Shown in pieces: positions 16,868 through 46,528 of a stretch of 64,000 nucleotides of DNA (position 1 is the stretch's first letter; each line of letters begins with the position of its first letter). The notes below the pieces were generated by a model, which worked only from the letters and a program-made list of their open reading frames with translations, did no database searches and was not told the origin of the DNA. Position numbers and translations under genes: made by a program. The stretch covers positions 620,001 to 684,000 of the forward strand of contig NC_005042.1 in the NCBI RefSeq assembly GCF_000007925.1. The letters are read 5' to 3'. This stretch comes from Prochlorococcus marinus subsp. marinus str. CCMP1375 (GTDB lineage Bacteria > Cyanobacteriota > Cyanobacteriia > PCC-6307 > Cyanobiaceae).

Positions 16868-17368
16868 TTAAATGGCCTTATCCTTATTGCTCTTTGCAAT
16901 TTTTAGAGCAATTAATCCACCTCCGGCATTAAATAAATGCTTTACTCTTTCATTGAAATCAAAAGGTCCATAGAAGAAACTTGCTATAGCAACTGTTGAT
17001 ATGGGCATGACCGCTAATTTCCATGATTTCTGCCGGAACCCCCAGACAATGGAAGTTATAGGTGAAATTAAACCTGCTACCACTCCAATCAGCCATGGAC
17101 TACATCTAGCCCTTCTATAAGAAGAAATAGACAAGTCATTTTTACAGACTTTTAATTGGCATTCGCTTAATCTGAAGTATTCACTTTGAGGAATTCGAAC
17201 GTCCTTGAATTTTTTATGTAACTTCCTTTCTAGTTGTTCATATTGATTTGTAGATAGGACTTTTATAATTTCATCTGGTTTAAGAACATTCATTCTCTTT
17301 TTAATATTCTGAGTCACACCGATTTTGTACAGGTCCTTATTTCGGATTAGATAGACATACCCACTCAC
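16868..17368 (-). CDS. GIY-YIG/T5orf172-like domain protein with membrane tail
   Basis: A 166-residue protein. Residues 1-80 match the T5orf172/MUG113 branch of the GIY-YIG nuclease superfamily: SGYVYLIRNKDLYKIGVTQN, Arg in IKKRMNVL, Glu and His in LERKLHKKF, and SEYFRLS. All expected active-site positions are present. Residues ~92-160 hold two or three hydrophobic segments, so the domain seems tethered to a membrane, which is unusual. A paralogue with a decayed active site lies at 46151-46528. Biological role unknown. Confidence 0.75.
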   Translation of the reverse strand: MSGYVYLIRNKDLYKIGVTQNIKKRMNVLKPDEIIKVLSTNQYEQLERKLHKKFKDVRIPQSEYFRLSECQLKVCKNDLSISSYRRARCSPWLIGVVAGLISPITSIVWGFRQKSWKLAVMPISTVAIASFFYGPFDFNERVKHLFNAGGGLIALKIAKSNKDKAI

Positions 17369-17550
17369 TCATTTATTGATCATCTAATTTTATATCTTAG
17401 TTCTTTTTTGCTTTTTTAAGTGAGCATGCCTTGGCTTTTCAAATTAACAATTAGAGCAAAATTCTCCTTTCTTTGCGTTAAGACATTTTCTTAATGACTC
17501 AAATTATAATCATGGGAAGCATTCTAAATCCAAGCAAAATTAAAAGATAT

Positions 17551-17580
17551 TAAAAACATATCTCGCTAAAAGCAAGATAT
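17551..17580 (-). terminator. Probable intrinsic terminator
   Basis: On the minus strand the stem ATATCT(T)GC / GC(G)AGATAT with a short loop is followed by GTTTTTAAT, 62 bases past the stop of the 59-residue gene. Confidence 0.5.
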
Positions 17581-17642
17581 AGCAATGTATTTGATATTTA
17601 CTTCTTTATTAAAATTACTTAGATGTTAGCTTTGATTGAATC

Positions 17643-17822
17643 TTAGTCCTTTACAACATAAATATCCTTGGCATAGAAGCTGGAATAGCCGTCCTTAGCT
17701 CTCCAGCGGAAAAGAACTATATGAACTGGTATAACAAATAAGGCATGAAAGAAGGTAAGCAGGAAGAAATCCCAAGGGATGCCTGGTTGTCCGTACATTG
17801 CAAAAAGAGGTGAAAGAAGCAT
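17643..17822 (-). CDS. Small membrane-associated protein (59 aa)
   Basis: Frame MLLSPLFAMYGQPGIPWDFF, then LLTFFHALFVIPVHIVLFRW, ending YAKDIYVVKD. One membrane helix (about 18-38) is followed by a charged aromatic tail. Strongly protein-like composition and a plausible terminator downstream. The family is not named. Confidence 0.6.
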   Translation of the reverse strand: MLLSPLFAMYGQPGIPWDFFLLTFFHALFVIPVHIVLFRWRAKDGYSSFYAKDIYVVKD

Positions 17823-17992
17823 TTCTGTAGAGGTTTCGAGCTTTGTTCATTCATTTTGCCTCTTAAATACTTAATTCGTACTATCAATATTTAAAAATTA
17901 ATGCGTTTTAAAAAAACACTCTGTTCTTGACTGCCATTATTTAGTTGATATACATATAAGATAGCGCTTCTCAGATCGTTGAGACACATTGC

Positions 17993-17998
17993 TATAAT
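17993..17998 (+). promoter_or_regulatory. Putative -10 element TATAAT
   Basis: A perfect TATAAT preceded by TTGC. The start would be near 18005, just in front of a short ribosome-binding-site/ORF/hairpin unit that ends near 18108. No consensus -35 is visible. Confidence 0.45.
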
Positions 17999-18031
17999 TG
18001 GGGTTTAGAGCGACTTTAGGGAGAAAATATT

Positions 18032-18088
18032 GTGACCTCTGCGAAATTTTTCGCATGCTATGGATTAGATGATTTAAATGATTGGTAA
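18032..18088 (+). CDS. Candidate 18-residue micropeptide within a short transcript
   Basis: GTG frame encoding MTSAKFFACYGLDDLNDW followed by TAA. AGGGAG lies 8 bases upstream at good Shine-Dalgarno spacing, and a TATAAT about 35 bases upstream could drive it. The stop codon falls inside a perfect 12-bp inverted repeat (18072-18099) that could terminate the transcript. The whole unit would be about 100 nt. It may be a microprotein, a dual-function RNA or a chance frame in a small RNA. Confidence 0.3.
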   Translation: MTSAKFFACYGLDDLNDW

Positions 18089-18099
18089 ATCATTTAAAT
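18072..18099 (+). terminator. Perfect 12-bp inverted repeat, possible terminator
   Basis: Arms ATTTAAATGATT and AATCATTTAAAT with loop GGTA, followed by ATCTTTCT. Perfect but AT-rich, so strength is uncertain. It closes the short unit beginning near 18005. Confidence 0.5.
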
Positions 18100-18298
18100 A
18101 TCTTTCTAAGACTCCTTTATTAATTGTTTTGATTTTATCGAAAAATGATTGCTAGACCATCAACGTTCATTTGATCTTTAGATGATGCTCTATTTATTAT
18201 TAGATAACTTTTTGTATGACCATGATGGTTAGTTAAGCTGATTTGGGTGGGAAGTTTATTTTTTGAAGTCCTTACTGCATTGTTCAGGAGTCTGAGCC

Positions 18299-18922
18299 TT
18301 GACCAGAAAATTACTTTCTATTTCAGGCCTATTATTAATTTTGTTTCTATTCATTCATTTGGGTGGTTTGTTTCTTGCGGTGTTTGCTCCCTTAATGTTT
18401 GAAACTTATGCAACAACCTTACATTCAGCTTTTTGGTTTAAGTATTTTGAATTGGGATTGCTTGTTGTTGCTGTTACGCATATATGGTTAACGCTTTCAA
18501 AAGTAATTGCTAATTCTCAGTCAGGTAATTCTTCAGCATTATCTAGTCGGCGCAAAGATTTCTTTGCAGTATTTGCGGCGCGTACTCAACCTATTGGAGG
18601 TATTTTGCTGTTGTCGTTTATTTTGATTCATCTTGAGCAAGTTCGTTTCCCAAGGCCTCTTAGTGGAGAAGAGATTTCTGCTCTGTCAGTAGTTCTTCAC
18701 TCTCCAATTACATTTTTAATTTATTTGCTCGGTTCACTTGCTTTACTTCTTCACCTCTTTCATGGTGCTGAGTCTGCTAATAGAAGCCTTGGGTTGTTAA
18801 CGACTGAGAACACTTCCTTAATACGAGCCTTTGGACGTAGTATGTCGATCTTGATTGCATTTGGCTTTATTTTGATTACCTTTTTTCTACGGGGCAACAT
18901 CCTAAATTCTCAGGTTGGATGA
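18299..18922 (+). CDS. sdhC: Succinate dehydrogenase/fumarate reductase cytochrome b subunit
   Basis: A 207-residue membrane anchor with about five helices, resembling the single-anchor cytochrome b558 type seen with SdhA and SdhB in Bacillus-like complexes. Conserved His lie in LFLFIHLGGLF, TTLHSAFW, VTHIW, FILIHLEQV and LLLHLFHGAE, suited to bind two hemes. The TTG start is supported by CAGGAG about 6 bases upstream. It overlaps sdhA by 4 bases. It would pass electrons from succinate to the quinone pool. Confidence 0.85.
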   Translation: MTRKLLSISGLLLILFLFIHLGGLFLAVFAPLMFETYATTLHSAFWFKYFELGLLVVAVTHIWLTLSKVIANSQSGNSSALSSRRKDFFAVFAARTQPIGGILLLSFILIHLEQVRFPRPLSGEEISALSVVLHSPITFLIYLLGSLALLLHLFHGAESANRSLGLLTTENTSLIRAFGRSMSILIAFGFILITFFLRGNILNSQVG

Positions 18923-20841
18923 GTAACTCTCTAGATCCCTGCTTGCCAAGTGGACCATTAAAAGGTGCATGGGGAAGGATTTTGGAAAAATCTATTTCGA
19001 TTAAACCTGAAAGGAAGGAAGATATGTCTATTGTTGTCGTAGGAAGTGGCTTGGCTGGATCTGCGGCGGCTGCAACCCTTGCCGAACAAGGCTATAGAAT
19101 TAGATTAATTATATTTAATGATAGCCCTCGTCGTTCTCATTCCGTTGCTGCTCAAGGAGGGATCAATGCTGCAAGACCTTTGAGATTGGGAGATGAGGAT
19201 GGAATTGATCAGTTGTTTAAGGATACTTTGAGAGGGGGTGATTTTAGATCGAGAGAGGCTGGTTGCCAAAGGCTTGCAGAAATAAGTAGCTCAATTGTTG
19301 ATCAGTGTGTGGCTCAAGGCGTTCCTTTTGCTAGAGAGTATGACGGCTCGCTTGCTACAAGACGTTTTGGTGGAGCACTTATTAGTAGGACTTTTTATGC
19401 GCGTGGTCAAACAGGACAGCAATTACTTTATGGTGCTTATCAAGCTCTTATGCGTCAGGTCGCTAGTGGCAAAGTAGAACTCCTAACACGTAGAGATGTT
19501 CTTGAGTTGGTTAAAGTTAATGGCAAAGCAAGAGGAGTTGTTTGTCGTAATCTTCTTAATGGTGACATTGAAGTTTATAGAGCTCAAGCAGTGATCTTGG
19601 CTACAGGGGGATATAGCAATGTTTACTTTTTATCTACTAATTCGATGAAATCAAATGCTAGTGCAATATGGAGAACACATCGCCAAGGAGCGTTCTTTGC
19701 TAACCCATGCTTTACTCAGATACATCCTACGTGTATCCCTGTTGGGGGACCTTATCAGAGTAAATTAACTTTAATGAGTGAGAGTTTAAGGAATGATGGT
19801 CGAATTTGGCTCCATAAACTAGCTAAAGATAGACGATGCCCATCATCAATTCCTGAGGAAGAAAGAGATTATTTCTTAGAACGTCTTTATCCCACTTATG
19901 GAAATCTAGTGCCGAGGGATGTGGCATCACGTAGAACCAAAGAACTTTGCGACGCGGGATTTGGCGTGGGCATTGATGGACGCTCTGTTTATCTGGACCT
20001 TCGTGATGCAATCCTTAGTAAAGGATCAGATGTGATTAGATCTAAATATGGCAATTTGTTAGAGATGTATGAGCGAATAGTGGGAGAGGACCCGTTTAAA
20101 ATGCCTATGCGAATTTATCCTGCACCTCATTACACAATGGGTGGTTTATGGGTTGATTATAATTTAATGAGTACTATCCCTGGCCTTTTTGTAATTGGCG
20201 AAGCTAATTGCACTGTGCATGGTGCCAATCGTTTAGGAGCAAATGCCCTTTTACAGTGTTTATCTGATGGTTATTTTATAGTCCCTACTTCTATTACAAC
20301 ATGGTTAGCAGAACATGGTTCTTCAAACTCATCAAAGGAAATAGATATCGCTTGTAAAGAGGCAGTTTCTAGAGTAAGAAGACGCATTTCTAATTTAACT
20401 AAAATCCAAGGATCAGTTTCAGTTGATATGTTTCATCGTAAACTCGGAGAGATAATGATTAATCGTTGTGGAATCACAAGAAACAAGACAGGTTTAGAAG
20501 CTGGACTGAATGAGGTCAGGTTTTTGCAAGATCAGTTCTATCAAGATGTTCGAATCCCTTACGGAGTTGACTGTCCTAATCCTGAACTTGAGAAGGCATT
20601 AAGAGTTTCTGATTTCTTTGAACTTTCCTTGTTGATGCTTACTGATGCACTAGAGAGAAATGAGTCATGCGGCGCACATTTTCGAGAGGAATTTCAGACA
20701 CAAGCAGGAGAAGCAATGAGGAATGATTCTGAATATTCCCATATTGCAGCTTGGCAGTATGTAGAAAATTCAAAACCCATCAAGCACTGTGAGAAACTTT
20801 CTTTTACAAGTCTCAAGCCAAATACACGTAGTTATAAATGA
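18919..20841 (+). CDS. sdhA: Succinate dehydrogenase/fumarate reductase flavoprotein
   Basis: A 640-residue catalytic subunit. FAD-binding motif VVVGSGLAGSAAAATLAEQG (~40-60), the flavinylation segment SHSVAAQGGINAA with the covalent-FAD His, QIHPTCIP and the capping domain, PAPHYTMGGLWVDYN, and GEANCTVHGANRLGANALLQ. These match the SdhA/FrdA family along the whole length. Translationally coupled to sdhC upstream (ATGA) and sdhB downstream (ATGA). With sdhB it oxidises succinate to fumarate. Confidence 0.93.
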   Translation: MSNSLDPCLPSGPLKGAWGRILEKSISIKPERKEDMSIVVVGSGLAGSAAAATLAEQGYRIRLIIFNDSPRRSHSVAAQGGINAARPLRLGDEDGIDQLFKDTLRGGDFRSREAGCQRLAEISSSIVDQCVAQGVPFAREYDGSLATRRFGGALISRTFYARGQTGQQLLYGAYQALMRQVASGKVELLTRRDVLELVKVNGKARGVVCRNLLNGDIEVYRAQAVILATGGYSNVYFLSTNSMKSNASAIWRTHRQGAFFANPCFTQIHPTCIPVGGPYQSKLTLMSESLRNDGRIWLHKLAKDRRCPSSIPEEERDYFLERLYPTYGNLVPRDVASRRTKELCDAGFGVGIDGRSVYLDLRDAILSKGSDVIRSKYGNLLEMYERIVGEDPFKMPMRIYPAPHYTMGGLWVDYNLMSTIPGLFVIGEANCTVHGANRLGANALLQCLSDGYFIVPTSITTWLAEHGSSNSSKEIDIACKEAVSRVRRRISNLTKIQGSVSVDMFHRKLGEIMINRCGITRNKTGLEAGLNEVRFLQDQFYQDVRIPYGVDCPNPELEKALRVSDFFELSLLMLTDALERNESCGAHFREEFQTQAGEAMRNDSEYSHIAAWQYVENSKPIKHCEKLSFTSLKPNTRSYK

Positions 20842-21578
20842 CAAGAAGAATCTCTCTTAAATTGCGTATTTGGCGCCAAGACTCGCAGGCTGATAAGGGC
20901 AAGTTTGATGAATATGTTTTGGAAAACCTTTCTATAGATCTTTCTATCTTGGAGATGTTAGATCAACTTAATGAAAAATTAATTTTGAATGGTGAGAGAC
21001 CAATAAATTTTGAACATGATTGCAGAGAAGGTATTTGTGGAAGTTGTGGGTTTCTTATAAATGGACAAGCTCATGGGCCTAACACTGCTACAACTATTTG
21101 CCAGTTGTATCTTCGTCATTTCAAAGACAATCAAACCCTAACTCTTGAGCCATGGAGAGCAAAAGCTTTTCAGATAATTCAGGATCTCGTTGTAGATCGA
21201 TCTCCTTTTGACAGGGTAATAGCCTCTGGAGGCTACTGTTCGGTGGACACTGCAGTTCCTCCGCCAGATGGCAATGCTTTCTTGGTAAGTCAGGAGGAGG
21301 CCTTCTCTGCCTTTCAAACAGCAACATGTATTGGTTGTGGAGCTTGTGTAGCAAGTTGTAAGAATGCTTCTGCAAGCTTATTTGTTGCTGCCAAGATTGC
21401 TCATTTAGGACAGTTGCCACAAGGACAATTAGATAGATCCCTTAGAACAAAAAACATGCAAAAACAAATGATCCAAGAAGGGTTTGGTAGTTGTAGTAAT
21501 AATCTTGAATGTGAGGCGGTTTGTCCTAAGGAGATTTCAGCAAGTTGGATTAGTTGGATGAATAGAGAAGATCTTTGA
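20838..21578 (+). CDS. sdhB: Succinate dehydrogenase/fumarate reductase iron-sulfur subunit
   Basis: A 246-residue electron-transfer subunit. The N-terminal 2Fe-2S ferredoxin domain has CREGICGSCGFLINGQ plus a later Cys (ATTICQLY). The C-terminal domain has CIGCGACVASCKN and CSNNLECEAVCPKE for the 4Fe-4S and 3Fe-4S clusters. Third gene of sdhCAB, overlapping sdhA by 4 bases. Length and motif order are normal. Confidence 0.92.
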   Translation: MTRRISLKLRIWRQDSQADKGKFDEYVLENLSIDLSILEMLDQLNEKLILNGERPINFEHDCREGICGSCGFLINGQAHGPNTATTICQLYLRHFKDNQTLTLEPWRAKAFQIIQDLVVDRSPFDRVIASGGYCSVDTAVPPPDGNAFLVSQEEAFSAFQTATCIGCGACVASCKNASASLFVAAKIAHLGQLPQGQLDRSLRTKNMQKQMIQEGFGSCSNNLECEAVCPKEISASWISWMNREDL

Positions 21579-21631
21579 TGGATTTTGTGATGCGAGAAAA
21601 TTGAAGGTATTTAATTAACCTCTAATTGATT

Positions 21632-21790
21632 CTAGGCTGGAGTAGTTGCATAGGTGGTTGATAAACTTGGCAGACCTGTTCCACCACTGTCTTGATCGTC
21701 ATCATCATTGCCGAAGCTAGAGATAAGGGCATATATGCCTCCAAGCGAAAATATTGCAGAAAACACAATTGCTAATAATTCTGATTCCAA
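21632..21790 (-). CDS. Small membrane protein (52 aa) with acidic linker
   Basis: Frame opening with TTG: MESELLAIVFSAIFSLGGIY, then a GNDDDDQDSGG acidic linker and a Thr/Ser-rich end. One membrane helix at residues 4-25. No strong ribosome-binding site; ATT or TTG codons upstream could also serve. The helix-plus-acidic-linker pattern looks real. Convergent with sdhB. Confidence 0.5.
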   Translation of the reverse strand: MESELLAIVFSAIFSLGGIYALISSFGNDDDDQDSGGTGLPSLSTTYATTPA

Positions 21791-22189
21791 AATATTAAAT
21801 AAAATTTTAGAGAGCCTAATTGATCAGAGGCTAATCTGCGAATATATTTTGTCTTAGTTAGAAGAGATTCTTTGCCTAAATTTATTTGTAAAGCAGCTTT
21901 CTGGATAGAAATATTAAAAAAAGAGTACTATTAAAGATGGTCTGTTATTCATTATTGGTCTCTTGAGATCCCTTTTATTGTCATTCTTTCACCCCACGTA
22001 ATGACGACTTGCTTTGCTTTTGATGGAAACAAGAGATATATCCCTTGAAAAGACAATAGATATCTAATTACAGTTTGATGAAATTATTAAAAACAATAGA
22101 ACAGAGACTAAAACTCAATTATTTCTAACAAGAGGATGAAACTAATTTTTTACGCATGATTTACAGGATTTGAATCGAATTGAAAGTTT
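21791..22189. other. Intergenic region, no gene seen
   Basis: AT-rich spacer between two divergent small genes. It presumably holds their promoters, but no consensus was convincing. Confidence 0.4.
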
Positions 22190-22519
22190 ATGCGCTATAA
22201 ATACATACTTGTCTTTTCTTCAGCAATGGAATCTCAAAGGAATCAATCAGAGTCTGGCATGATTAAACGAATTCAACAGTTGGGATTAGACCGATGGGAT
22301 GCTCTTTCAGATCGTCAGAGAAAATATACTAAGAAAATCTGGTCAGTGATTACTTTTAAGTGGAGATGGCAGATAGCTATGAATATTCCTTATCTAGCTA
22401 TTTTTGTTTTAGACAGAAGTATTCCATCTGTTCACAAGTTCAACATGGATCTACTTTTGGCTGTTAGTTCTAAGCTTCCGATTCCCTCGTTTCTTTCTTC
22501 TTGGTCTGGGTTAGGGTAA
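22190..22519 (+). CDS. Small membrane protein with SIPSVHKF motif (up to 109 aa)
   Basis: The basic soluble part (MIKRIQQLGLDRWDALSDRQ) is followed by FKWRWQIAMNIPYLAIFVLD, a single membrane helix, and then RSIPSVHKFN. The (I/V)P(S/A)VH(K/Q)F motif right after the helix recurs in the 84-residue protein at 35047. The start is uncertain: ATGs at 22190, 22226 and 22259 are all in frame, and the conserved-looking part begins at the last two. Function unknown. Confidence 0.65.
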   Translation: MRYKYILVFSSAMESQRNQSESGMIKRIQQLGLDRWDALSDRQRKYTKKIWSVITFKWRWQIAMNIPYLAIFVLDRSIPSVHKFNMDLLLAVSSKLPIPSFLSSWSGLG

Positions 22520-22578
22520 ACAAAAGTAAGTATAGGATTGTTTTGTTATGGTTTTGAAAATTGATTTGGATTTAAATT

Positions 22579-22725
22579 GTGAATAGTTTGTTTGCTGTAC
22601 TTGATCCAGGGATTAAGCTTTTTATTTCTATAGTAGCTATTGCTGGCCCATTATCTATTCTTTTAATGTTCCTCCTTCTCAAAAAGATTGAGAAAAACTC
22701 GCCTGACCGGATTAGATGGCGTTAA
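22579..22725 (+). CDS. Small single-helix membrane protein (48 aa)
   Basis: GTG frame MNSLFAVLDPGIKLFISIVA, then IAGPLSILLMFLLLKKIEKN and the end SPDRIRWR. One membrane helix, then a basic cytoplasmic tail. It follows the 109-residue gene by 59 bases on the same strand, perhaps as an operon. Family unknown. Confidence 0.55.
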   Translation: MNSLFAVLDPGIKLFISIVAIAGPLSILLMFLLLKKIEKNSPDRIRWR

Positions 22726-22818
22726 TAGAATCGATGTTAATGCCATCAATACTATAGATAATTGTCAGTTCAATAACTAAATCAAATCATGGATACTTGG
22801 TTCTTATTGAGTTACGAC

Positions 22819-25533
22819 TTAGCTTAATCTAAATATTTGTTCTGCGAATGAAGCGTATGATTCCGGATCACAAGTCAAAATAATTACTTGTAAGCCTTGG
22901 TTAACAGCTTTTGTCAGCATTTGTTTGATATGGGGGATTCGTTCTGGATCCGAGTTTGCAAATGCATCATCAAAGACTAGAGGTAGACATCCATCATGTT
23001 CATGTTTCAGCACTTCAGCCATGGATAGACGTAGTGCAGCTGATAGTTGCTCTCTCATCCCTCCGCTTAATTGATCGAAGGAATAAAATTCTTTCCCTCT
23101 TTTCATTTGAAGACCGCTGAAACCTGTAGTCTGATTGAAACTTAAGTGTGCTATGGGCTGTTTTGAAAATAAAGGTTGCAGATATTTTCCAATTGACTTT
23201 GCTAAAGGCTCGCTATAACGGCTTGAGAGATCTGACTGAACATTATTGAAAAGCTCTTTTAGTAATTTGTGTGAATCTGTTATTCTCTGAAGACTTTTAA
23301 AGTCAGTTTCCACATTTTCTAACTTGACTTTCGTTTCTTCGACAGCAGCATAAGGGTCTGAATTGCTAATGGTTTCACAATTTCTTCTGGCAGCTCCTTT
23401 GCTGGCAATTAGGGCTTCTTTTTTTTGATCAAGAGATTTAAGTCTGTTTTCAATGCTTGATAAGTCTGATGATTTATCACATTTTTCTAATGAATTGAAT
23501 TGACTTTTTAAATTAGTTAAATGATCTTGTGATTTTTGAAGTTGTAGTTTAATTGAGTTTATTTTAGTTTCTAAAAGTTTTTCTTCGCCATGCTCTTCTT
23601 GAAGAGATTTAAGGATTTTTCTGGAAGAGATTAGTTCCCCATTAATTATTTTTGAATTACTTTCATTCTCTATTAGATCGCTTCTAAATTTCTGTACAGT
23701 AGATTGTGTTTTTTCTAAATCTTGCTCTGATTCATTCAAGCTTGAAGATGTATCAATAAAAGCCTTTTTTGCCTTGCGCTGTAGTTCGGTGAGTTCAATT
23801 ACATTGTTCGATAAAAGTTGTTCGTTTTCCAATTCCTTACTATTTTTAAGACAAGCTAGAATTTGTTTTTCAAAATCCCAATCCTTTAGTTTGCATTCTT
23901 CGAGTTCCTCTTTTTTTGATTGAATACTCTCTTTTGTCGCTATGTCTAGAGCTGCAATTTGCTGTTCTAGACTAAACCTGGTTTCAAAATGCTCCTCTGC
24001 AAACTCCAATGATTGCAAGCCATTTTCAGATAGTAGGTTTGAATATTCTTTTTTCATCTCCTTATATTTAAATTGTACATCACTTAGAGTTTCATACCCA
24101 CCTGGAGTGATTTCTAAAGCAATCTTGTCTCCAATTTCTAGTTCAAAAGTTTTACTAAATTGCTCTTTTTCTCCAATCGGAAGCTTCTTACCATTAAGAA
24201 GAATAGGCTGATTAGATCGTATGATTTTGACGCTTGTTGTCATTGAATTTTGCCGAGTACGACTATCTCGAATTTTTTGATTTAATTCTTTTAACTTTTG
24301 CAAGTCTGAGCGACTTATCTTTGAATAAGAAGTTACTTGCTGTTCAAGCTCTTTTTGTTTCGTTGTGAGCTGTTCTATTTTATTTAATTCAGTATTTAAC
24401 CTAGAGATTGATTCTTTAATGCGTGCTTGATCTACTAATACTTGAAGCACCTCGCGTCGCTTATTGATTCGTCCAAGATCTTCTTTTAGCTTGTGATGCA
24501 TTTCCTGTTTTGTTTTTAATTTTTCAGTCATTAAGCTCTCAAGCGCTTTTTCTTGATTGTGTTCCTTGAATGATTCCTTCTGTTCCTGCTCCTTTTTCTT
24601 AATATCACCTTTAAGTTGCCTAATGCTTATCAACGCTTTTTGTGATGTGTTATACCGTAATTCAATTGGTTCCAACTCCTTTTCAACAAGATTTATTTCT
24701 CGTTCAAGTTTTTTGATGTTTTCAGCTTTTATAGACACAAGATGTTTCTGCTTAAGAAGTTTGGGTAATTCTAGATTTTGCAGATGATTCAACTCTTCAG
24801 TAATTTCAATGAGTTCTTCACTGGATTGTTCATATTCTTCAAGTCTAGATATTGCTATTTCCAGAGCACTTTCTGCATTGTCTAATTCTTTTTGGCGTTG
24901 CCAATAAGGAGAGTTTTTCTTGGTTCCACGTCTAGTAAAGTTCTCTTCGATTGCCTCTTCAATTTTTTTTATGACACGTTGATCATTATTTGATTGCTGA
25001 ATAGCAGCACCACCAGTTTTTTCCAGTTGAATTAGTAATGAATCAAAATCGTAATACTCTTTTTCATTCTTTAGAAGATCATTACCTGCTGACCCTTGCA
25101 TTACCCAAAGATGTGACCAGCGAGTTGCTAAAAGACTGCCTGCTTGACGGCTCCCTAGGGATTCTTTTACTCCAAGAATACCTGCCAAGCATTCTTCAGC
25201 GTTTTGTCCTGAGAGTTGTTCACCAGTTTCTTCACTAAGAAGAGTGACTTGTCCTGATGCCCCTGTAAAACACTTATTCAAGAAATATGTTTGACCTTTG
25301 GCTTCAAATTGGAGATGAATAGTCGGGTGACCCAAATGTATTTTTGACCTAAGAGCTTCTATTGGGGCACCAGTTGCTGTTGCCTTTAAAAACAAGGTTC
25401 TGTGAATAGCTTCAATTAGGGTGCTTTTTCCTGTTTCGTTTCTCCCGCCAATTAATGTGATTTTTGGTGAAAAATTCACAGTGAGATCATCATGTGTCTT
25501 GACGTTCTTTATTTGGCACTTAACAAGACGCAT
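22819..25533 (-). CDS. SbcC/Rad50/YhaN-like coiled-coil ATPase
   Basis: A 904-residue SMC-like ATPase, the presumed partner of the SbcD-like nuclease upstream. Walker A is in LIGGRNETGKSTLIEAI (~30-45), then long coiled coils. The ABC signature LSGGMREQLSAALRLSMAE and Walker B PLVFDDAFANSDPERI are near the C-terminus. No CxxC zinc hook is seen. Instead, residues ~425-470 form a beta-rich insert (NQPILLNGKKLPIGEKEQF, LEIGDKIALEITPGG). The GxNExGKST Walker A resembles YhaN. It begins 6 bases after the nuclease gene stops. Role: DNA end processing or repair. Confidence 0.82.
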   Translation of the reverse strand: MRLVKCQIKNVKTHDDLTVNFSPKITLIGGRNETGKSTLIEAIHRTLFLKATATGAPIEALRSKIHLGHPTIHLQFEAKGQTYFLNKCFTGASGQVTLLSEETGEQLSGQNAEECLAGILGVKESLGSRQAGSLLATRWSHLWVMQGSAGNDLLKNEKEYYDFDSLLIQLEKTGGAAIQQSNNDQRVIKKIEEAIEENFTRRGTKKNSPYWQRQKELDNAESALEIAISRLEEYEQSSEELIEITEELNHLQNLELPKLLKQKHLVSIKAENIKKLEREINLVEKELEPIELRYNTSQKALISIRQLKGDIKKKEQEQKESFKEHNQEKALESLMTEKLKTKQEMHHKLKEDLGRINKRREVLQVLVDQARIKESISRLNTELNKIEQLTTKQKELEQQVTSYSKISRSDLQKLKELNQKIRDSRTRQNSMTTSVKIIRSNQPILLNGKKLPIGEKEQFSKTFELEIGDKIALEITPGGYETLSDVQFKYKEMKKEYSNLLSENGLQSLEFAEEHFETRFSLEQQIAALDIATKESIQSKKEELEECKLKDWDFEKQILACLKNSKELENEQLLSNNVIELTELQRKAKKAFIDTSSSLNESEQDLEKTQSTVQKFRSDLIENESNSKIINGELISSRKILKSLQEEHGEEKLLETKINSIKLQLQKSQDHLTNLKSQFNSLEKCDKSSDLSSIENRLKSLDQKKEALIASKGAARRNCETISNSDPYAAVEETKVKLENVETDFKSLQRITDSHKLLKELFNNVQSDLSSRYSEPLAKSIGKYLQPLFSKQPIAHLSFNQTTGFSGLQMKRGKEFYSFDQLSGGMREQLSAALRLSMAEVLKHEHDGCLPLVFDDAFANSDPERIPHIKQMLTKAVNQGLQVIILTCDPESYASFAEQIFRLS

Positions 25534-32684: not shown

Positions 32685-33218
32685 TTAAGCTAGAGGTTGA
32701 TCACTGTCTGCCCACATTGGGTCTTGTCTATTAAAGGTTTTTTTAGAAGGAGGCCTATATCGATGAAGGCTCTCAATTTGTTTAACCCATTCTCCTGTAA
32801 ACCCTTTCAATCCTTTAATCATTGCTGGATGAGAAAAGTTCATTTTTCTTCGTATTATCAATAGGCCGACTACTTTTTCAAATAAATCTTTTTCTTTATA
32901 AAGGTTTAGCCAGAAATCATAAATCTCTTCAAGAATATTAAGAGGAAGGTCATATGAAATTCCTTGAGATGGTGTTTCTAAAAAATAACCATCAGAGATA
33001 CAATCATTTATTAGGTTCGCAAGATTTATTTCAATAGCATTTAATATTTCTTTTGCTGCAGACTCTCCAATTAGCTCTTTGCGATAGCACTCTAAAAAAC
33101 ATTTATCTTCTTTTAGTGGATCTTCATTTTTAGTTAGGCCAATCCTCCAAAATCCCTCACCTTGCTTTTCCCCATTTACTAAATACAAAAATTGACATTC
33201 AGTCATTTTATTTGCCAA
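32685..33218 (-). CDS. Soluble protein with a possible GIY-YIG-like N-terminus (177 aa)
   Basis: The first ~35 residues (CQFLYLVNGEKQGEGFWRIG, then LTKN) resemble the opening strands of T5orf172/MUG113 GIY-YIG proteins (YLxxN...KIGxTxN). The remainder is helical with a Trp/Arg-rich end (GFTGEWVKQIESLHRYRPP). The downstream Arg and Glu of the nuclease fold are not clear, so the family link is tentative. Met1 or Met5 may be the start. Confidence 0.55.
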   Translation of the reverse strand: MANKMTECQFLYLVNGEKQGEGFWRIGLTKNEDPLKEDKCFLECYRKELIGESAAKEILNAIEINLANLINDCISDGYFLETPSQGISYDLPLNILEEIYDFWLNLYKEKDLFEKVVGLLIIRRKMNFSHPAMIKGLKGFTGEWVKQIESLHRYRPPSKKTFNRQDPMWADSDQPLA

Positions 33219-37864: not shown

Positions 37865-37873
37865 AATAATTAA

Positions 37874-40052: not shown

Positions 40053-40210
40053 AGTTGCTCTCAATTTTCTGATGAGATAATTCTTTTGAGAAGTGCGATT
40101 CTTTTCTTTTCTATTCTTCAGATAAGATAATTGGAAATCTTTAAGTTGAATAATTGAGCTCTAGCAAGCATTTATAGCACCTAAGATTAGCAAATTAAAA
40201 AGTTGGACAT

Positions 40211-40245
40211 AAAAAAAGGGTTGATTTTTAATCAACCCTTTTTTT
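40211..40245. terminator. Bidirectional intrinsic terminator
   Basis: Stem GGGTTGAT/ATCAACCC, loop of 5, flanked by seven A on one side and seven T on the other. It lies between convergent genes and can end both. Confidence 0.85.
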
Positions 40246-40268
40246 GTAAGATAAATCCACTTGGGGAT

Positions 40269-40418
40269 TTAGTCTTTTTTAGCAGGGATGTTTTGTTGGT
40301 CGTAATCAGGCCCTACAAGTACTGCCATTACAGCAAAAAGTGCTATTGCAGCAATTCCAAGGTAAGCAGCTGATGGGGCAGGGGTGCTTAGTAGACCGGC
40401 AAATGTAAAAGGAAACAT
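40269..40418 (-). CDS. Small single-helix membrane protein (49 aa)
   Basis: Frame MFPFTFAGLLSTPAPSAAYL, then GIAAIALFAVMAVLVGPDYD, ending QQNIPAKKD. It shares the PSAA-...-LFAV-...-VGP layout with the protein at 15119, so the two are probably paralogues. One membrane helix. Clear intrinsic terminator 23 bases beyond the stop. Reminiscent of small photosystem subunits, but not identified as one. Confidence 0.65.
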   Translation of the reverse strand: MFPFTFAGLLSTPAPSAAYLGIAAIALFAVMAVLVGPDYDQQNIPAKKD

Positions 40419-40477
40419 GGCATTTAGTAAACAGTGCTATTAATACATCAAAAGACTCTTGAGGCGTGTTTTTTTAT

Positions 40478-40657
40478 TTACATTGTTATGTTTTTACTTT
40501 TTTTACGAGCCTGAGACCAAGTAAGAAACCAGTTGGAACTTTTGTCAAGAAGCTCTTCAGGAATAGTGTCTTGAAGTTCGGAAATGGCTGCTCGCATATA
40601 AGGATCTCCTTCATCAAAGTGCTCAAAGAAGTCAATAAGATTCAAAGTGTCTTTCAT
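40478..40657 (-). CDS. Small acidic soluble protein (59 aa)
   Basis: Frame MKDTLNLIDFFEHFDEGDPY, then MRAAISELQDTIPEELLDKS and SNWFLTWSQARKK. Helical, acidic, no membrane segment, with well-spaced aromatics. ATG start, TAA at 40478-40480. The opposite-strand frame over the same bases is a shadow. The look is of a conserved picocyanobacterial protein; function unknown. Confidence 0.62.
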   Translation of the reverse strand: MKDTLNLIDFFEHFDEGDPYMRAAISELQDTIPEELLDKSSNWFLTWSQARKKSKNITM

Positions 40658-40843
40658 ATCAGATTTAGCACTCTGGTGAGTGGCATTTTTAGCGTAAGAT
40701 CTTAAATTCTCTTGTCAATAGTTGCTGTGAGTAGACGATTTATAGTCTTTGGAATAGGTAAATAATGCAATTGTTTTTAATGATTTGATGGGCGGCGTAA
40801 TGATTTTTTTAGTGGGTAAAAGATATCAATTTACTAAATTATA

Positions 40844-42040
40844 TCAAGGTATTTTTTTTAAGCCTGCCTTTGCAAGTTCATTTTGAAGAGTATTTTCACA
40901 TGAAAGTACCCTTGCCCAGCAAGGTAGTTGCTTGGTCACAGGAGATTCAAGGAACTGAATTATCGATGGCCTTAAAATACTTGCGAATTTCTGCACGGAC
41001 AATTCTTCCTCATGTCTATCGTAAGGAATATTGTTAACAGCAGAATCCAGTCCAAATTGTTTGACTCTGTCTTGACCAACTCTTTTATAAAGTACTTCTA
41101 GCGTGGATATTTGAGAATTTGTAAGTGTTTCAGCTTGATGCTCCATTAAGCCTCTTAATACACTAGAGAGAATTTCCGTGCACATTCTTTGAAGCCCCTC
41201 TTTTGGGTTTTTCCCTACTTCTTTATGCTTATGATCAAATATCCCTAGATCGACTTGAGCTATTCTGGAAAGCCTTACATTTCTATAAACTTCTGAAAGA
41301 AGTCCTATCTCCAACCCCCAATCGCAAGGAATCCTTAAATTCATCCCTAGGTCTCTAGTAAAGGCAAATTCTCCTGCTAAAGGATATCTAAAAGCTTCTA
41401 GATATTTCAGGAAAGCCCCTTGTCCAAATATTTGTTCTAATGATGCTAACAATGGTCCTACAAATAACCTTGTAGCACGTCCTTGGAGAGCATTTGATTC
41501 CAATGATAAACGACTATAAAAAGCTTTAACGTATGAAATGCCATGAGATTGATCCAGCAAAGGTTGCAGCATTCTTGCTGGATAGGATGTACTGAAAGTT
41601 CTAATATCTGCATCGAATAGAGCTACTACTTCAGATTCTCTAGTTGCCAAGCCAATGCCTTGCCATACAGCCCATCCTTTACCTGGAGTACCTATTAGAT
41701 CAAGCCCATTTTTCCTTTGATCTTGAAGTAGCTCTATAACTGCAGGACTATTTGTCCATTGCACATGAACAGGAAAAGGCATTGATGAAAAAAACTTTTT
41801 AGCTTCTTCAACTTCATCTGCTGACTGAGCTGATAAAGCAATTATTAGTTCGTTAAGTCCTTCTAAATTGCTTAAAACATCCCTTGTTTGCGTTAATGCG
41901 GGCCTTTTAAACTCCTCATAAAGACAAGGAATTAATATTGCGGTAGGTCTTTTTTTTAGACCCTGCCTCAAATCAATTAGAGAATCCTTAGTAACTCCAT
42001 ACTCATGAATTGTTGTGATCAAACCCTGTTTAAAGTCCAT
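40844..42040 (-). CDS. gpgS: Glucosyl-3-phosphoglycerate synthase
   Basis: A 398-residue GT81-type glycosyltransferase, making glucosyl-3-phosphoglycerate from NDP-glucose and 3-phosphoglycerate. Motifs: AILIPCLYEEFKRPALTQ, GTPGKGWAVWQGIGLA, the divalent-metal DAD in VVALFDADIRTF, and LAGEFAFTRDLGMNLRIP with GLEIGLLSEV. These match GpgS proteins. Its start lies 46 bases from the divergent phosphorylase/phosphatase/kinase operon, so a shared promoter region is likely. Product is the compatible-solute precursor. Confidence 0.88.
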   Translation of the reverse strand: MDFKQGLITTIHEYGVTKDSLIDLRQGLKKRPTAILIPCLYEEFKRPALTQTRDVLSNLEGLNELIIALSAQSADEVEEAKKFFSSMPFPVHVQWTNSPAVIELLQDQRKNGLDLIGTPGKGWAVWQGIGLATRESEVVALFDADIRTFSTSYPARMLQPLLDQSHGISYVKAFYSRLSLESNALQGRATRLFVGPLLASLEQIFGQGAFLKYLEAFRYPLAGEFAFTRDLGMNLRIPCDWGLEIGLLSEVYRNVRLSRIAQVDLGIFDHKHKEVGKNPKEGLQRMCTEILSSVLRGLMEHQAETLTNSQISTLEVLYKRVGQDRVKQFGLDSAVNNIPYDRHEEELSVQKFASILRPSIIQFLESPVTKQLPCWARVLSCENTLQNELAKAGLKKIP

Positions 42041-42086
42041 TCGGTGATAAGAGCAACAGAATGAAAGAAGTGCTTACGACGATCCT

Positions 42087-43865
42087 GTGCAAAGTATTGG
42101 GAAATACGTAGTGACAGGTGCAGAAATCCAATTAGATGAATTGAGTTCTTTACTCAAGAAAATCTACACAGACAAGTCTGTAGAAGAATTTGATTATATG
42201 TGGTCGCAATTGATTCAGATTTTAGAAGCGAATAGTGATAATTGCTTTGAGGGTAAGCAAATCCACTCTTGTCCATGGGATTCTACAACTGCAGTTTTGA
42301 TTACATATGCTGATGGAGTTTATTCATCCAATCGATCAACATTAAAAACACTTGGCAAGCTAATTGAAAACCATTTAGGGGAAATTGCTCCCATAATTCA
42401 CCTCTTGCCATTTTTGTGTTCTACAAGTGATGGTGGTTTTGCTGTTTCTAGTTATGAGAAAATCGATTCACGTTTTGGTTCTTGGGATGATTTGAAAAAT
42501 CTTTCTGATAAACATATTTTGATGGCAGATCTTGTTCTCAACCACGTATCAGCTTCCCATCCTTGGGTTCAACAATTTAAAAACGGAACTAACCCTGGCA
42601 AAAATTATATTTTATCTCCATCAATTAAAAATAATTGGGAAAATGTTATTAGGCCTAGAAATACTTCTCTTTTTACAAATATTGCAACTATTGAAGGCAA
42701 TAAAGATGTATGGACAACATTTGGTCCAGATCAGATAGATGTTAATTGGAGGGAGCCAAAACTTTTATTAGAGTTTATAAATTTAATTGTTAGATATTTA
42801 AATCACGGAATAAAGTGGATTCGTTTAGATGCAATAGGTTTTATCTGGAAAGAGCCTTCAACTACTTGTTTGCATATGGAGCAAGTGCATAATTTAGTAA
42901 AAGTATTAAGAATTATACTTGAAAAACTTAAAAGATCAGGTGTTCTAATAACAGAAACTAATGTCCCTGAGAAAGAGAATATATCTTACCTTAAATCAGG
43001 TAGTGAGGCACATTTAGCATATAATTTCCCTTTGCCTCCTCTGTTACTCGAATCTTTAATTAATAATAAAGCTGATTTAATTAATAACTGGTTATGCTCA
43101 TGGCCAGACTTGCCTGTTAATACAGGTTTTCTTAACTTTACAGCATCTCATGATGGTATTGGTTTAAGAGCATTAGAAGGCTTGATGGATTCTAGGAGAA
43201 TACATAATCTATTGATTTCGTGTGAAAAAAGAGGAGGTCTGGTTAGTCATAGGCGAATGCCCAATGGAGAAGATAAGCCTTATGAATTAAATATCAGTTG
43301 GTGGAGTGCGATGGCAGATACTGGTGTTAATACAAATTATCTACAGTTTGAAAGGTTTATTTTGAGCCAATTCTTTGTAATGGCTTTAAAAGGGGTTCCT
43401 GCTTTTTATTTGCAAGCAATAATGGCTTCTGAAAATGATTTAGTAAGTTTTGGTCAATCCGGAGAAAGAAGAGATCTTAACCGTCAAAGATTTGATGAAA
43501 ATACATTAGAGAATTCATTGCTTGATCCAAAATCTTTTGCAAGTAAAAATTTAAAAGCGTTAAGGAATGCAATGACTGTTAGAAGTTCTCTAAAGGCTTT
43601 CCACCCTGAACAGGCCATGCATTGTCTTAGCGGAAATCGGAGTGATTTCGTTATTATTCGTCGGGGAATGAATGATTGTTGTGTATGGGCTGTTCACAAT
43701 ATGACTAATAAAAAATTAAGTTTTAGCCTTTCAGATAACTTGAAAACCGAGATTAAGAATAGTTATTATTGGAATGATGCTTTAAATAATCAAGATTATA
43801 AACATGACTATATGGAATTAAGCCCTTATTCTGTACATTGGTTAATTAAAAAAAATGAAAATTGA
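42087..43865 (+). CDS. GH13 sucrose/glucosylglycerate phosphorylase
   Basis: A 592-residue GH13 subfamily 18-type enzyme. Sites: LMADLVLNHVSASHPW (conserved region I), nucleophile Asp in WIRLDAIGFIWKEP, acid/base Glu in LITETNVP and the transition-state Asp in TASHDGIGLRA. In this context the substrate is probably glucosylglycerate, yielding glucose-1-phosphate and glycerate; sucrose is the alternative. It overlaps gpgP by 11 bases. Start: the first codon may also lie slightly downstream, but 42087 fits family length. Confidence 0.8.
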   Translation: MQSIGKYVVTGAEIQLDELSSLLKKIYTDKSVEEFDYMWSQLIQILEANSDNCFEGKQIHSCPWDSTTAVLITYADGVYSSNRSTLKTLGKLIENHLGEIAPIIHLLPFLCSTSDGGFAVSSYEKIDSRFGSWDDLKNLSDKHILMADLVLNHVSASHPWVQQFKNGTNPGKNYILSPSIKNNWENVIRPRNTSLFTNIATIEGNKDVWTTFGPDQIDVNWREPKLLLEFINLIVRYLNHGIKWIRLDAIGFIWKEPSTTCLHMEQVHNLVKVLRIILEKLKRSGVLITETNVPEKENISYLKSGSEAHLAYNFPLPPLLLESLINNKADLINNWLCSWPDLPVNTGFLNFTASHDGIGLRALEGLMDSRRIHNLLISCEKRGGLVSHRRMPNGEDKPYELNISWWSAMADTGVNTNYLQFERFILSQFFVMALKGVPAFYLQAIMASENDLVSFGQSGERRDLNRQRFDENTLENSLLDPKSFASKNLKALRNAMTVRSSLKAFHPEQAMHCLSGNRSDFVIIRRGMNDCCVWAVHNMTNKKLSFSLSDNLKTEIKNSYYWNDALNNQDYKHDYMELSPYSVHWLIKKNEN

Positions 43866-44658
43866 GTATAAAAAAACTCCTTTGTGGATAGTCACCGATA
43901 TTGATGGTACTTTAATGGACCATCAATATGACTTTTCTCCAGCATTATCAACCATTAAATGGTTACAAGAACTTGGAATCCCCATAATTCCTTGTACAAG
44001 TAAGACCGCTGCTGAAGTAAGAGCTTTAAGACTAGAACTTGGAATAACAGATCCTTTCATTGTAGAGAATGGTGGTGCTATTTATGGTGATGAATTATCA
44101 TCAAATGAAGAATGGGAACTTGTCTTAGGTAAAAGCTATAAATATTTAAGATCTAAATTAGAGTTGATATCTTTAGAACTTGGTTATAAACTAATTCCAT
44201 TAAATGATTTGTCTTATCAAGAGATAAATGAACTTACTGGTTTAGAGGGTAGGGGAATAGAACTTGCTCTTGATAGAAAATGGAGTGTTCCTTTCTTGAA
44301 CCCAAAGGATTCTGATAGAGAACGAATTACTGAAATTGCTTCAAGTTTGTGCACCTCAATTTATAAGGGCAATCGTATGAGTCACTTGTTGGGAGAAGGT
44401 AGTCATAAAGGTAAGGCAGTAATTGAATTAAAGAAGTTTCTTAATCAACCAAATATCAAAGTAGTAGCCTTAGGAGACTCTCAAAATGATTTACCCTTGC
44501 TCGAAGTTGCTGATATCGCTATTGTTATTCCAAGCAGAAATGGACCTAATAAATTCTTAAAGAAAGGAATAGATAAGGGAGAATTTCTGTTAGCACCGGC
44601 ACCACACTCAGAAGGTTGGGCGTTAGCAATTAGAGATTTACTTATTAAGTCTATATAA
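43855..44658 (+). CDS. gpgP: Glucosyl-3-phosphoglycerate phosphatase (MpgP-like HAD)
   Basis: A 267-residue HAD hydrolase of the MPGP branch. Motif I WIVTDIDGTLMDH with nucleophile Asp, PCTSKTAAEVRALRLELG (motif II area), IVENGGAI, and motif III/IV VVALGDSQNDLPLLEVAD. It would dephosphorylate the GpgS product to glucosylglycerate. It overlaps the phosphorylase (11 bases) and is 4 bases ahead of the kinase. Confidence 0.87.
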   Translation: MKIEYKKTPLWIVTDIDGTLMDHQYDFSPALSTIKWLQELGIPIIPCTSKTAAEVRALRLELGITDPFIVENGGAIYGDELSSNEEWELVLGKSYKYLRSKLELISLELGYKLIPLNDLSYQEINELTGLEGRGIELALDRKWSVPFLNPKDSDRERITEIASSLCTSIYKGNRMSHLLGEGSHKGKAVIELKKFLNQPNIKVVALGDSQNDLPLLEVADIAIVIPSRNGPNKFLKKGIDKGEFLLAPAPHSEGWALAIRDLLIKSI

Positions 44659-44662
44659 AGAT

Positions 44663-45682
44663 ATGAGTGATAATTTTTCTAATAAATCGAATCTTAATAA
44701 AAACATTTCTCCATGGTTAGATCCCAAGCATTCAGATATTTTATTTCCTTTTGCCAATCTTCAGTCCCTTTTAAATGATTTAGGATGGGAATCTGACGAA
44801 TGGATTAATTACTGGTTGGCAAAGGATGGATATAATCTTGCTGCTTCATTTTGGGCAAAGGGAACTAAATTAGATTGGTTATGGGGATTGGGTTTGCCAT
44901 TCCTTACTGATATTAAAAGATTTGCAAAAATCAATAATGCTAGGAAAGTATACGGAATTTCAGCATTGCCTGGATGCGGGAAAACTAGTTTTGGCAAATG
45001 GATAGAAGCTGCTGCAAAAGAATTAGATATTTCTATTAAAGTACTATCTTTAGATGATTTTTATTTGCCTGGATCTGAGTTAGAAAAAGCAATGAAAGAC
45101 AACCCTTGGAACGTACCTAGAGGTCTTCCTGGAAGTCATTCAATTAATCTATTAGAGAATGTAATTGATAAATGGATTTCAACAGGATCACTTAAAGCAC
45201 CTCAGTTTGACAAGTCTTTAAGGAAAGGTCTAGGAGATAGATCAGGTTGGACAAATTCCTCCCCTGATGTTTTAGTTTTAGAGGGCTGGTTCTTAGGATG
45301 TACTCCATTAAAATCTTCATTAAATTTCAATGGAAAAGATGATGTATTAAGTCCGAAACTTACAATATTTGAAAGTGACTATAGATTAAAAGTTCAAGAA
45401 CTAATAAAGGATTATTTGCCAATATGGCAACGAATAAACCGAATATGGCATCTTAAAGCAAATGATTTTTCTTCTACATGTAAATGGAAAGTAGATCAAG
45501 AAAAAGAAATGCTAGTGTCCAAAGGGTCAGCATTGCAAGGTGAACTTCTTTCTTCTTTTGTTCGTATGATTGAGGCTTCAATACCTCAAGAAAGTCTTAT
45601 GAATATTGATTGTAATGTAGTTGTTGAAATCAATAACTTAAGAGAGATCCTTAATATTTTGCCTAGCAGAAGACAATTTTAA
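44663..45682 (+). CDS. D-glycerate 3-kinase (P-loop, GLYK type)
   Basis: A 339-residue P-loop kinase. Walker A ISALPGCGKTSFGKW (~98-112), VLSLDDFYLPG (catalytic Asp pair), and PDVLVLEGWFLG. It closely follows the plant/cyanobacterial glycerate kinase pattern used in photorespiration. Within this operon it could also rephosphorylate glycerate released by the phosphorylase, feeding 3-phosphoglycerate back. Gap to gpgP is 4 bases. Confidence 0.85.
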   Translation: MSDNFSNKSNLNKNISPWLDPKHSDILFPFANLQSLLNDLGWESDEWINYWLAKDGYNLAASFWAKGTKLDWLWGLGLPFLTDIKRFAKINNARKVYGISALPGCGKTSFGKWIEAAAKELDISIKVLSLDDFYLPGSELEKAMKDNPWNVPRGLPGSHSINLLENVIDKWISTGSLKAPQFDKSLRKGLGDRSGWTNSSPDVLVLEGWFLGCTPLKSSLNFNGKDDVLSPKLTIFESDYRLKVQELIKDYLPIWQRINRIWHLKANDFSSTCKWKVDQEKEMLVSKGSALQGELLSSFVRMIEASIPQESLMNIDCNVVVEINNLREILNILPSRRQF

Positions 45683-45754
45683 TAGAGGTTTAGTTGTTTT
45701 TTATACAGTATTTTCAGAGATTATGGAATTTAATGTTAGTCAATTAATAATGCC

Positions 45755-45982
45755 ATGCTCGATTTTTCTTATTGTAATGATAGCAATAGAATGGTAGTCC
45801 TAAGATGCATAGGGTCGAATCATTTTTTCTTGGAAAGGGTCTTATTCCCAAAACAAGTCATTGAATTTTTAGCACCTAGAGATTCAAAAGTAGAAATATG
45901 GGGCAATGAACTATATGGACCTAAGCTAGAACAGAGGATAAGGGTTGGTAGCATTATGAATGAAATACCTAAAGCTGCATAA
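45755..45982 (+). CDS. DUF1830 family protein
   Basis: A 75-residue cyanobacterial protein: YCNDSNRMVVLRCIGSNHFF, LERVLFPKQVIEFLAPRD and KVEIWGNELYGPKL match the DUF1830 pattern (YxNxTNxxxxxR...ERVVFP). Soluble, beta-rich. It follows the glycerate kinase by 72 bases on the same strand. Function unknown. Confidence 0.8.
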   Translation: MLDFSYCNDSNRMVVLRCIGSNHFFLERVLFPKQVIEFLAPRDSKVEIWGNELYGPKLEQRIRVGSIMNEIPKAA

Positions 45983-46150
45983 TACTTATCAAATCATTTT
46001 ATTATGGAGTTTTAGGGGATTCATTTTTTGCATATAATAGCTATCATATGCATATCCTCTGATAAATATTGTATAAATGCTAAAAAGGTGCATTACTACT
46101 ACTTATATTTAACTTCAACTCATACTTAAGAATTTTTAAATAAATCAATT

Positions 46151-46528
46151 ATGGAAGCTTATATTTATTTGATAAAGAATGGAGATCTTTACAATATTGG
46201 TACAAGCAATAATCTTCAAAAGACCCAGGATATGCTTGGTCCAGGCGAACTTTGTGCTTCTTTGAAAACCAAAGATGCAATTTCAATTTGTAGAAACTTA
46301 CATTTGAGTTACTCAGATGTTCGATTACCTAAAAGTGATTATTTTAGATTGTCTAAGTCTCAATTAATAGAGTGCAAGTTAATGCTAAGAGCAGAAGGCT
46401 CTGATAATTACTTTCAACCAATCTTTAGAGGTAGAGTTGCAATTGTATCCTTCTTGACTTCTTGGTTGGTACTTTCCGGACTTATAATCAAGCTCGGAAT
46501 TGATCCTATTCTTGAAAAATTATTTTAG
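46151..46528 (+). CDS. Degenerate GIY-YIG/T5orf172 paralogue with membrane helix
   Basis: A 125-residue protein similar along its first 80 residues to the one at 16868: AYIYLIKNGDLYNIGTSNNL and DVRLPKSDYFRLSKSQLIEC. The active-site Lys/Arg and Glu of the family are lost (NIGTSNN, LQKTQDML, ICRNLH in place of LERKLH), so nuclease activity is unlikely. A C-terminal membrane helix (IVSFLTSWLVLSGLIIKLGI) keeps the tethered design. Confidence 0.7.
   Translation: MEAYIYLIKNGDLYNIGTSNNLQKTQDMLGPGELCASLKTKDAISICRNLHLSYSDVRLPKSDYFRLSKSQLIECKLMLRAEGSDNYFQPIFRGRVAIVSFLTSWLVLSGLIIKLGIDPILEKLF

What the first reader, a model, noticed from the sequence alone, without database searches (positions are those of the whole stretch)
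16868..46528. Membrane-tethered GIY-YIG proteins: one intact, one with its active site lost
The proteins at 16868 and 46151 share the T5orf172/MUG113 fold signature followed by membrane helices. The first keeps Tyr, Lys, Arg, Glu and the SEYF end; the second lost Lys, Arg and Glu. A third protein at 32685 begins similarly. A nuclease domain at a membrane suggests action on incoming DNA (phage or uptake), with the degenerate copy as a possible regulator.
Basis: partly seen in the sequence, partly recalled or inferred. Interest (0 to 1): 0.65.

Follow-up and report, generated by a model that had tools for sequence, protein, structure and literature searches.

The report
Membrane-bound nuclease and its pseudo-nuclease paralogues
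A small marine cyanobacterium carries one membrane-anchored protein with an intact-looking DNA-cutting (GIY-YIG) domain and two related ones whose cutting residues are gone, and in its relatives the dead versions are kept more faithfully than the live one, so they probably do a job of their own.

Summary
Proteins A (16868-17368, minus) and B (46151-46528, plus) do carry T5orf172/MUG113 (GIY-YIG) domains followed by hydrophobic helices. A keeps Lys15, Arg25, His51, Glu63; B has Asn, Thr, His, Asp. Models of both resemble GIY-YIG nucleases in a second-look comparison. The third protein, 32685, shows no detectable relationship. A second degenerate paralogue, C, lies outside the window. A, B and C are separate lineages, mostly in conserved neighbourhoods. 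None of 28 B and 26 C sequences has the four-residue set, yet their domains look more constrained than the intact ones. C is full-length in 80 of 87 genomes of one genus; in 60 of those 80 no other T5orf172 gene was found. The dead copies are thus not decaying and need no intact partner. Best reading: A is a minimal membrane nuclease that may work like SNIPE, without SNIPE's DUF4041 and in inverted order; B and C are conserved membrane pseudo-nucleases with an unidentified ligand. Phage defence is not shown.

The parts
16868..17368 (-). Protein A: 166-aa membrane-tethered T5orf172/GIY-YIG protein with intact catalytic set (Y6, K15, R25, H51, E63)
17135..17368 (-). A, nuclease-like domain (residues 1-78), predicted beta-beta-alpha-beta-alpha core
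   Evidence: Pfam residues 3-78; model
16961..17104 (-). A, hydrophobic segments (residues 89-136)
   Evidence: hydropathy only; helices in the model
46151..46528 (+). Protein B: 125-aa degenerate paralogue (N15, T25, H51, D63)
46151..46378 (+). B, pseudo-nuclease domain (residues 1-76)
   Evidence: Pfam residues 4-76; model
46430..46501 (+). B, single C-terminal hydrophobic segment (residues 94-117)
   Evidence: hydropathy; helix 95-124 in the model
32685..33218 (-). Third protein named in the finding: NOT shown to be related; separate family without a Pfam name
16428..16811 (+). Neighbour of A (DCC1-like thiol-disulfide oxidoreductase), kept beside A in 6 of 6 relatives' loci; context only
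44663..45682 (+). Upstream neighbour kept beside B in 13 of 19 loci examined; context only

Best explanation
An old family of small membrane-tethered GIY-YIG-domain proteins has split in these cyanobacteria. A keeps the full catalytic set and is most likely an active nuclease whose membrane helices hold the domain at the inner face of a membrane, limiting it to DNA that passes there, as SNIPE is limited (inferred). B and C lost catalysis but keep the fold and the membrane anchor; they most likely work as non-catalytic binding modules at the membrane: C, still basic, may bind nucleic acid, while B, near neutral, more likely binds a protein. Shown: the domains, the residue losses, the separate lineages, the conserved places, the purifying selection, the occurrence of C and B without A. 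Inferred: nuclease activity of A, topology, ligands, any role in phage defence.
For: Domain. Fold: for B, the ten best rows of a second look at Foldseek's candidates are all GIY-YIG-type structures (Slx1, UPF0213, I-TevI; Z 5.2 to 3.4), above mostly unrelated rows at 3.1 and less; for A, Slx1 6sei_C Z 5.6, rmsd 3.1, 80 aligned, and T5orf172 proteins among the best viral models (53 with E<=0.001). Residues K15/R25/H51/E63: 8 of 8 A, 0 of 28 B, 0 of 26 C; C of 31 g8 genomes all R, K, L, G. Domain dN/dS pooled: A 0.17 (4 pairs), intact A' 0.16 (64), B 0.09 (237), C 0.05 (42). Lineages: A 100/99, C 98/92, B without one row 98/92. Prevalence: C 80 of 87 g8 genomes, B 17 of 17 g32 genomes, A 8 of 14 g1 genomes. 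Net charge of residues 1-80: median +11 A, +1 B, +7 C.
Against: No activity, localisation or phenotype data. Foldseek alone found no PDB match at E<=0.001 for A or B and the second-look Z values are low; B's model was built on an alignment that included intact members. C was not modelled. dN/dS pairs are not independent and the groups are compared partly across different clades. A and the unrelated-helix A' proteins are patchy, and A lacks the DUF4041 that SNIPE needs.
Confidence: 0.55

Rival explanations
1. The degenerate copies regulate the intact nuclease (for example by forming mixed dimers).
For: A and B lie within 30 kb of each other in this genome and share 46% identity in the domain; A, B and C occur together in two of the three g1 genomes that are over 90% complete.
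Against: B and C occur without A in G001 (99% complete); C is the only T5orf172 gene found in 60 of 80 g8 genomes; B is in 17 of 17 g32 genomes whereas the intact A' is in 13 of 17, one of them truncated.
Confidence: 0.12
2. B and C are decaying remnants without function.
For: Loss of catalytic residues in all 54 sequences.
Against: Domain dN/dS 0.09 and 0.05; open frames of nearly fixed length (B 124-129 aa in 47 sequences, C 180-186 aa in 25); kept in 17 of 17 and 80 of 87 streamlined genomes.
Confidence: 0.03
3. A is a minimal SNIPE-like phage-defence nuclease that cuts phage DNA during injection.
For: SNIPE precedent; related nuclease domain; PADLOC candidate-family PDC-S57 match to the domain, E=9.5e-10; lineage-limited and patchy; genuine SNIPE in some relatives.
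Against: No DUF4041, the part that SNIPE needs for DNA and tape-measure binding; PADLOC SNIPE model only E=0.038 over 18 residues; no defence neighbours; stable chromosomal place.
Confidence: 0.35
4. A is a housekeeping nuclease acting on the cell's own membrane-near DNA (repair, segregation) or on DNA taken up, not on phage.
For: Stable place and neighbours in 6 of 6 loci; distant fold kinship with Slx1 and UvrC, which is no evidence of function.
Against: A found in only 8 of 14 g1 genomes (several incomplete) and a broken A-like copy in one genome (L016, G003), unlike a housekeeping gene.
Confidence: 0.25

Closest known systems
SNIPE (PD-Lambda-1; DUF4041 + GIY-YIG membrane nuclease)
   Same: GIY-YIG domain of the MUG113/T5orf172 type with a membrane anchor; domain of A related to that of a SNIPE protein of the same family of bacteria.
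   Different: A is 166 aa, nuclease first and helices last; SNIPE has the helix first, DUF4041 in the middle, nuclease last. No DUF4041 in A. B and C have no catalytic set.
T5orf172 (PF10544) / MUG113 (PF13455) domain proteins
   Same: A and B score over the curated cut-offs; C of this genome just misses MUG113 (21.4 against 22.3 bits), while C in 79 or more g8 genomes is over the T5orf172 cut-off.
   Different: B and C lack the catalytic set; fused to membrane helices that have no Pfam name.
Slx1, UPF0213, I-TevI, UvrC N-terminal domain (GIY-YIG folds)
   Same: Best GIY-YIG rows for the models of A and B.
   Different: No sequence match to any solved chain at E<=1 with the family profile.
PADLOC candidate family PDC-S57
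   Same: Matches A's domain, E=9.5e-10.
   Different: The model is a 212-position candidate and also matches the nuclease part of SNIPE proteins, so it names the domain, not a system; B and C do not match.

Membership tests
T5orf172/MUG113 domain family | score over curated cut-off | tested here: met
   A 54.8 and 50.9 bits, B 27.5 and 24.6 bits against cut-offs 20 and 22.3
T5orf172/MUG113 domain family | score over curated cut-off for the third protein (32685) | tested here: not met
   no match at E<=1 for it; none of the 12 family members matched
GIY-YIG nuclease (catalytically competent), protein A | Tyr, Lys/Tyr, Arg, His and Glu of the active site | tested here: met
   8 of 8 A sequences keep K15, R25, H51, E63; roles of the residues are recalled
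GIY-YIG nuclease (catalytically competent), proteins B and C | same residues | tested here: not met
   0 of 28 B, 0 of 26 C
GIY-YIG nuclease | fold | tested here: inconclusive
   second look consistent, best GIY-YIG rows Z 5.6 (A) and 5.2 (B), but Foldseek alone gave no PDB match at E<=0.001
GIY-YIG nuclease | cleavage of DNA | not testable with these tools
   needs an assay
SNIPE (PD-Lambda-1) | DUF4041 domain | tested here: not met
   not in A, B or the third protein, nor in C; DUF4041 gene in none of the three g1 genomes sampled
SNIPE (PD-Lambda-1) | membrane helix at the N terminus, nuclease at the C terminus | tested here: not met
   order is reversed in A
SNIPE (PD-Lambda-1) | cuts phage DNA during injection | not testable with these tools
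   needs phage assays

The most novel reading that the evidence does not exclude
B and C are defence-nuclease derivatives turned into permanent, non-cutting membrane parts of the cell: a conserved membrane pseudo-nuclease (C) that binds nucleic acid, possibly entering phage DNA or the cell's own nucleoid, kept in nearly all genomes of one of the most streamlined groups of phototrophs after the cutting paralogues were lost.
Probability: 0.2. Interest if true: 0.75.

Novelty: new variant of a known kind. Interest (0 to 1): 0.5.

Why it matters
If right, a fold known for cutting DNA has become, twice, a conserved non-cutting membrane protein in very small genomes where useless genes are soon lost. 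It gives a concrete pair for testing what a membrane GIY-YIG domain does with and without catalysis, and it offers a smaller, differently built relative of the SNIPE idea of placing a nuclease where foreign DNA enters.

Tried and rejected
Third protein as a family member: rejected. Regulation of A by B as the main role: weakened by occurrence without A. Pseudogene decay: rejected. Membership in SNIPE: rejected on DUF4041 and order. Phage origin or cargo: no close relative found in viral contigs or, by tblastn at E<=1e-5, in 50,697 phage records for A and B; domain-level matches to phage families do exist (models), so this is about close relatives only. Solved structures by sequence: none at E<=1. 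Foldseek against PDB: no match at E<=0.001 for A or B. UvrC, YazA or other families not listed for a model are not excluded by that. Literature: searches for SNIPE, T5orf172/MUG113/GIY-YIG, Prochlorococcus with GIY-YIG, inactive GIY-YIG and T5orf172 with cyanobacterial names (only 5 of 7,693 listed): by the titles listed, none treats these proteins; only PMC13190303 was opened (outline with abstract, passages, section 9).

Limits: several g1 genomes are incomplete (54-89%). In the tree one B-like row (L076, G045), which keeps R25 and E63, falls outside the B clade, so B with it is supported only 57/51. C in two genomes (L058, L083) keeps neither the full set nor full loss: L058 keeps K15 and E63. 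B's neighbourhood is not kept in 6 of 19 loci and C's full neighbourhood not in 2 of 14. In g32, A' and C were told apart from other matches by length and earlier alignments, not by a new tree.

Full report
What is there. The window is G000:C1:620001-684000 of a complete 1,751,080-base genome; from its length I take it for Prochlorococcus marinus SS120 (recalled, not looked up). A scan of named genomes with the family alignment gave 44 loci, 43 of them titled Prochlorococcus and one a Planctomycetota MAG. Protein A (16868-17368, minus, 166 aa) and protein B (46151-46528, plus, 125 aa) both match T5orf172 and MUG113 over the curated cut-offs and each other at 46% over 76 residues. A has two hydrophobic segments after the domain, B one. 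A carries K15, R25, H51 and E63; B carries N, T, H and D there. The third protein (32685) belongs to a different conserved family (found in 13 of 60 relatives) without any detectable link to this domain.

Paralogues. A search of the own genome with A gives three places: A, B and a third protein C at G000:C1:711684, with a 185-aa frame, the domain and several hydrophobic segments. The T5orf172 profile finds A and a 393-aa protein of another build at 588665.

Fold. AlphaFold2 models: A mean pLDDT 85.2, pTM 0.66; B 81.4, 0.58. Both show strand-strand-helix-strand-helix in residues 3-53. Foldseek against the PDB gave nothing at E<=0.001 for either. In the second look by VIA-align 2, the ten best rows for B are Slx1 (6sei_C Z 5.2, rmsd 4.4, 85 aligned), UPF0213 proteins and I-TevI (Z 3.4); rank 11 is a LAGLIDADG enzyme (3.1), then UvrC (3.0) and ribosomal proteins (2.7). 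For A the list mixes Slx1 and At-HIGLE rows (Z 5.6 to 5.1) with helical rows matched to the membrane part (best 5.8). Against predicted viral proteins A has 53 matches at E<=0.001, many named T5orf172. Low Z values alone prove little; together with the Pfam matches I accept the fold for both. B's model used an alignment that included intact members.

Three lineages. From 113 loci I kept 92 distinct sequences: 8 A, 28 B, 26 C and 30 others. The four-residue set is complete in 8 of 8 A, 0 of 28 B and 0 of 26 C. In B, K15 is kept in 0, R25 in 1, H51 in 6 and E63 in 3 of 28; in C, K15 in 4, R25 in 0, H51 in 0 and E63 in 1 of 26. In a tree of 82 domain rows (90 columns) A is one side of a branch (100/99), C too (98/92); B is so at 57/51, and at 98/92 without one row, L076, that keeps R25 and E63. 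B and C together are split from A and the others at 84/84.

Distribution. Genus g1 (14 genomes, 11 with a match): A in 8, B in 11, C in 9, by my sorting of the match list; the three genomes without a match are 54-71% complete. Of the three over 90% complete, two have A, B and C and one (G001) B and C only. Genus g32 (17 genomes at 90% or more): B in 17; C-length matches in 16; an intact A' with unrelated helices in 13, one truncated. Genus g8 (87 genomes at 90% or more): full-length C in 80, a fragment at a contig end in one, only another T5orf172 protein in one, none in five. With the T5orf172 profile 23 of these 87 genomes have a match that is not C; 20 of them are among the 80, so C is the only such gene found in 60 of 80. 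In 31 g8 genomes checked, C has R15, K25, L51 and G63 in all 31 (30 rows covering 29 genomes; G246 and G253 by eye). In a sample of 200 genomes of the family, 77 have a match to A's domain or helices.

Selection. Nei-Gojobori dN/dS for pairs with dS between 0.05 and 1: medians 0.26 (A, 4 pairs), 0.33 (A', 64), 0.12 (B, 237), 0.11 (C, 42). Pooled for the domain: 0.17, 0.16, 0.09, 0.05; for the rest: 0.41, 0.52, 0.16, 0.16. So the degenerate domains are, if anything, more constrained. Pairs share branches, A has few pairs, and the groups do not all come from the same clade.

Neighbourhood. A lies beside the DCC1-like gene and the 17646 frame in 6 of 6 relatives' loci. B keeps its upstream neighbour (44663-45682) and at least one downstream neighbour in 13 of 19 loci. 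C lies beside the glutathione-S-transferase-like gene in 14 of 14 and also the short-chain dehydrogenase in 12 of 14. This looks like vertical inheritance. None of ten neighbours has a convincing PADLOC match; one (44663) has a 37-residue match at 7.4e-5.

How it may work. [quoted passage not shown] it needs its nuclease residue E414 and its DUF4041, and is toxic when freed from the membrane (PMC13190303, passages). A's domain is related to the nuclease of SNIPE proteins found in this bacterial family (DUF4041 in 12 of 200 genomes, none of them g1, g8 or g32 in that sample; one clear SNIPE protein in g8 genome G262). I therefore think A is a membrane-held nuclease that works by place, in the manner of SNIPE; that phage DNA is its target is a guess at about one in three. 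It is not a SNIPE: no DUF4041, reverse order. B and C must work without cutting by the usual chemistry. The basic C domain (median +7) could still bind nucleic acid, the near-neutral B domain (+1) hardly. What they bind is unknown.

Verdict.

Noticed in passing
L170:421-1896 (genome G262, genus g8): A clear SNIPE protein (PADLOC PD-Lambda-1 E=4.8e-138, DUF4041 2.6e-16) in a Prochlorococcus-like genome that has no match to C.
   Followed up: partly
L106, L107, L108, L109, L110: The C-terminal membrane module of A (RRxKCNPxLIG...) also occurs without the nuclease domain: as 105-115 aa proteins, after a cysteine-rich N-terminal part (L108), and in a protein with PP-binding and SHOCT domains (L110).
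   Followed up: partly
G000:C1:588665-588997 (L005): 393-aa protein with a T5orf172 domain near its C-terminus, of another build, in the same genome.
   Followed up: no
L025 (genome G010): 369-aa protein with two hydrophobic stretches in the middle and a T5orf172 domain at the end, SNIPE-like in order; no DUF4041 listed.
   Followed up: no
window 32685-33218: Conserved family without a Pfam name in 13 of 60 relatives; 31 invariant columns in 12 sequences, among them W24, C44 and RKEL46-49.
   Followed up: partly
L016 (genome G003): A-like frame interrupted by a stop in one genome: intact copies can decay.
   Followed up: no
L076 (genome G045): B-like protein that still has R25 and E63 but N15: a possible intermediate in the loss.
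   Followed up: no
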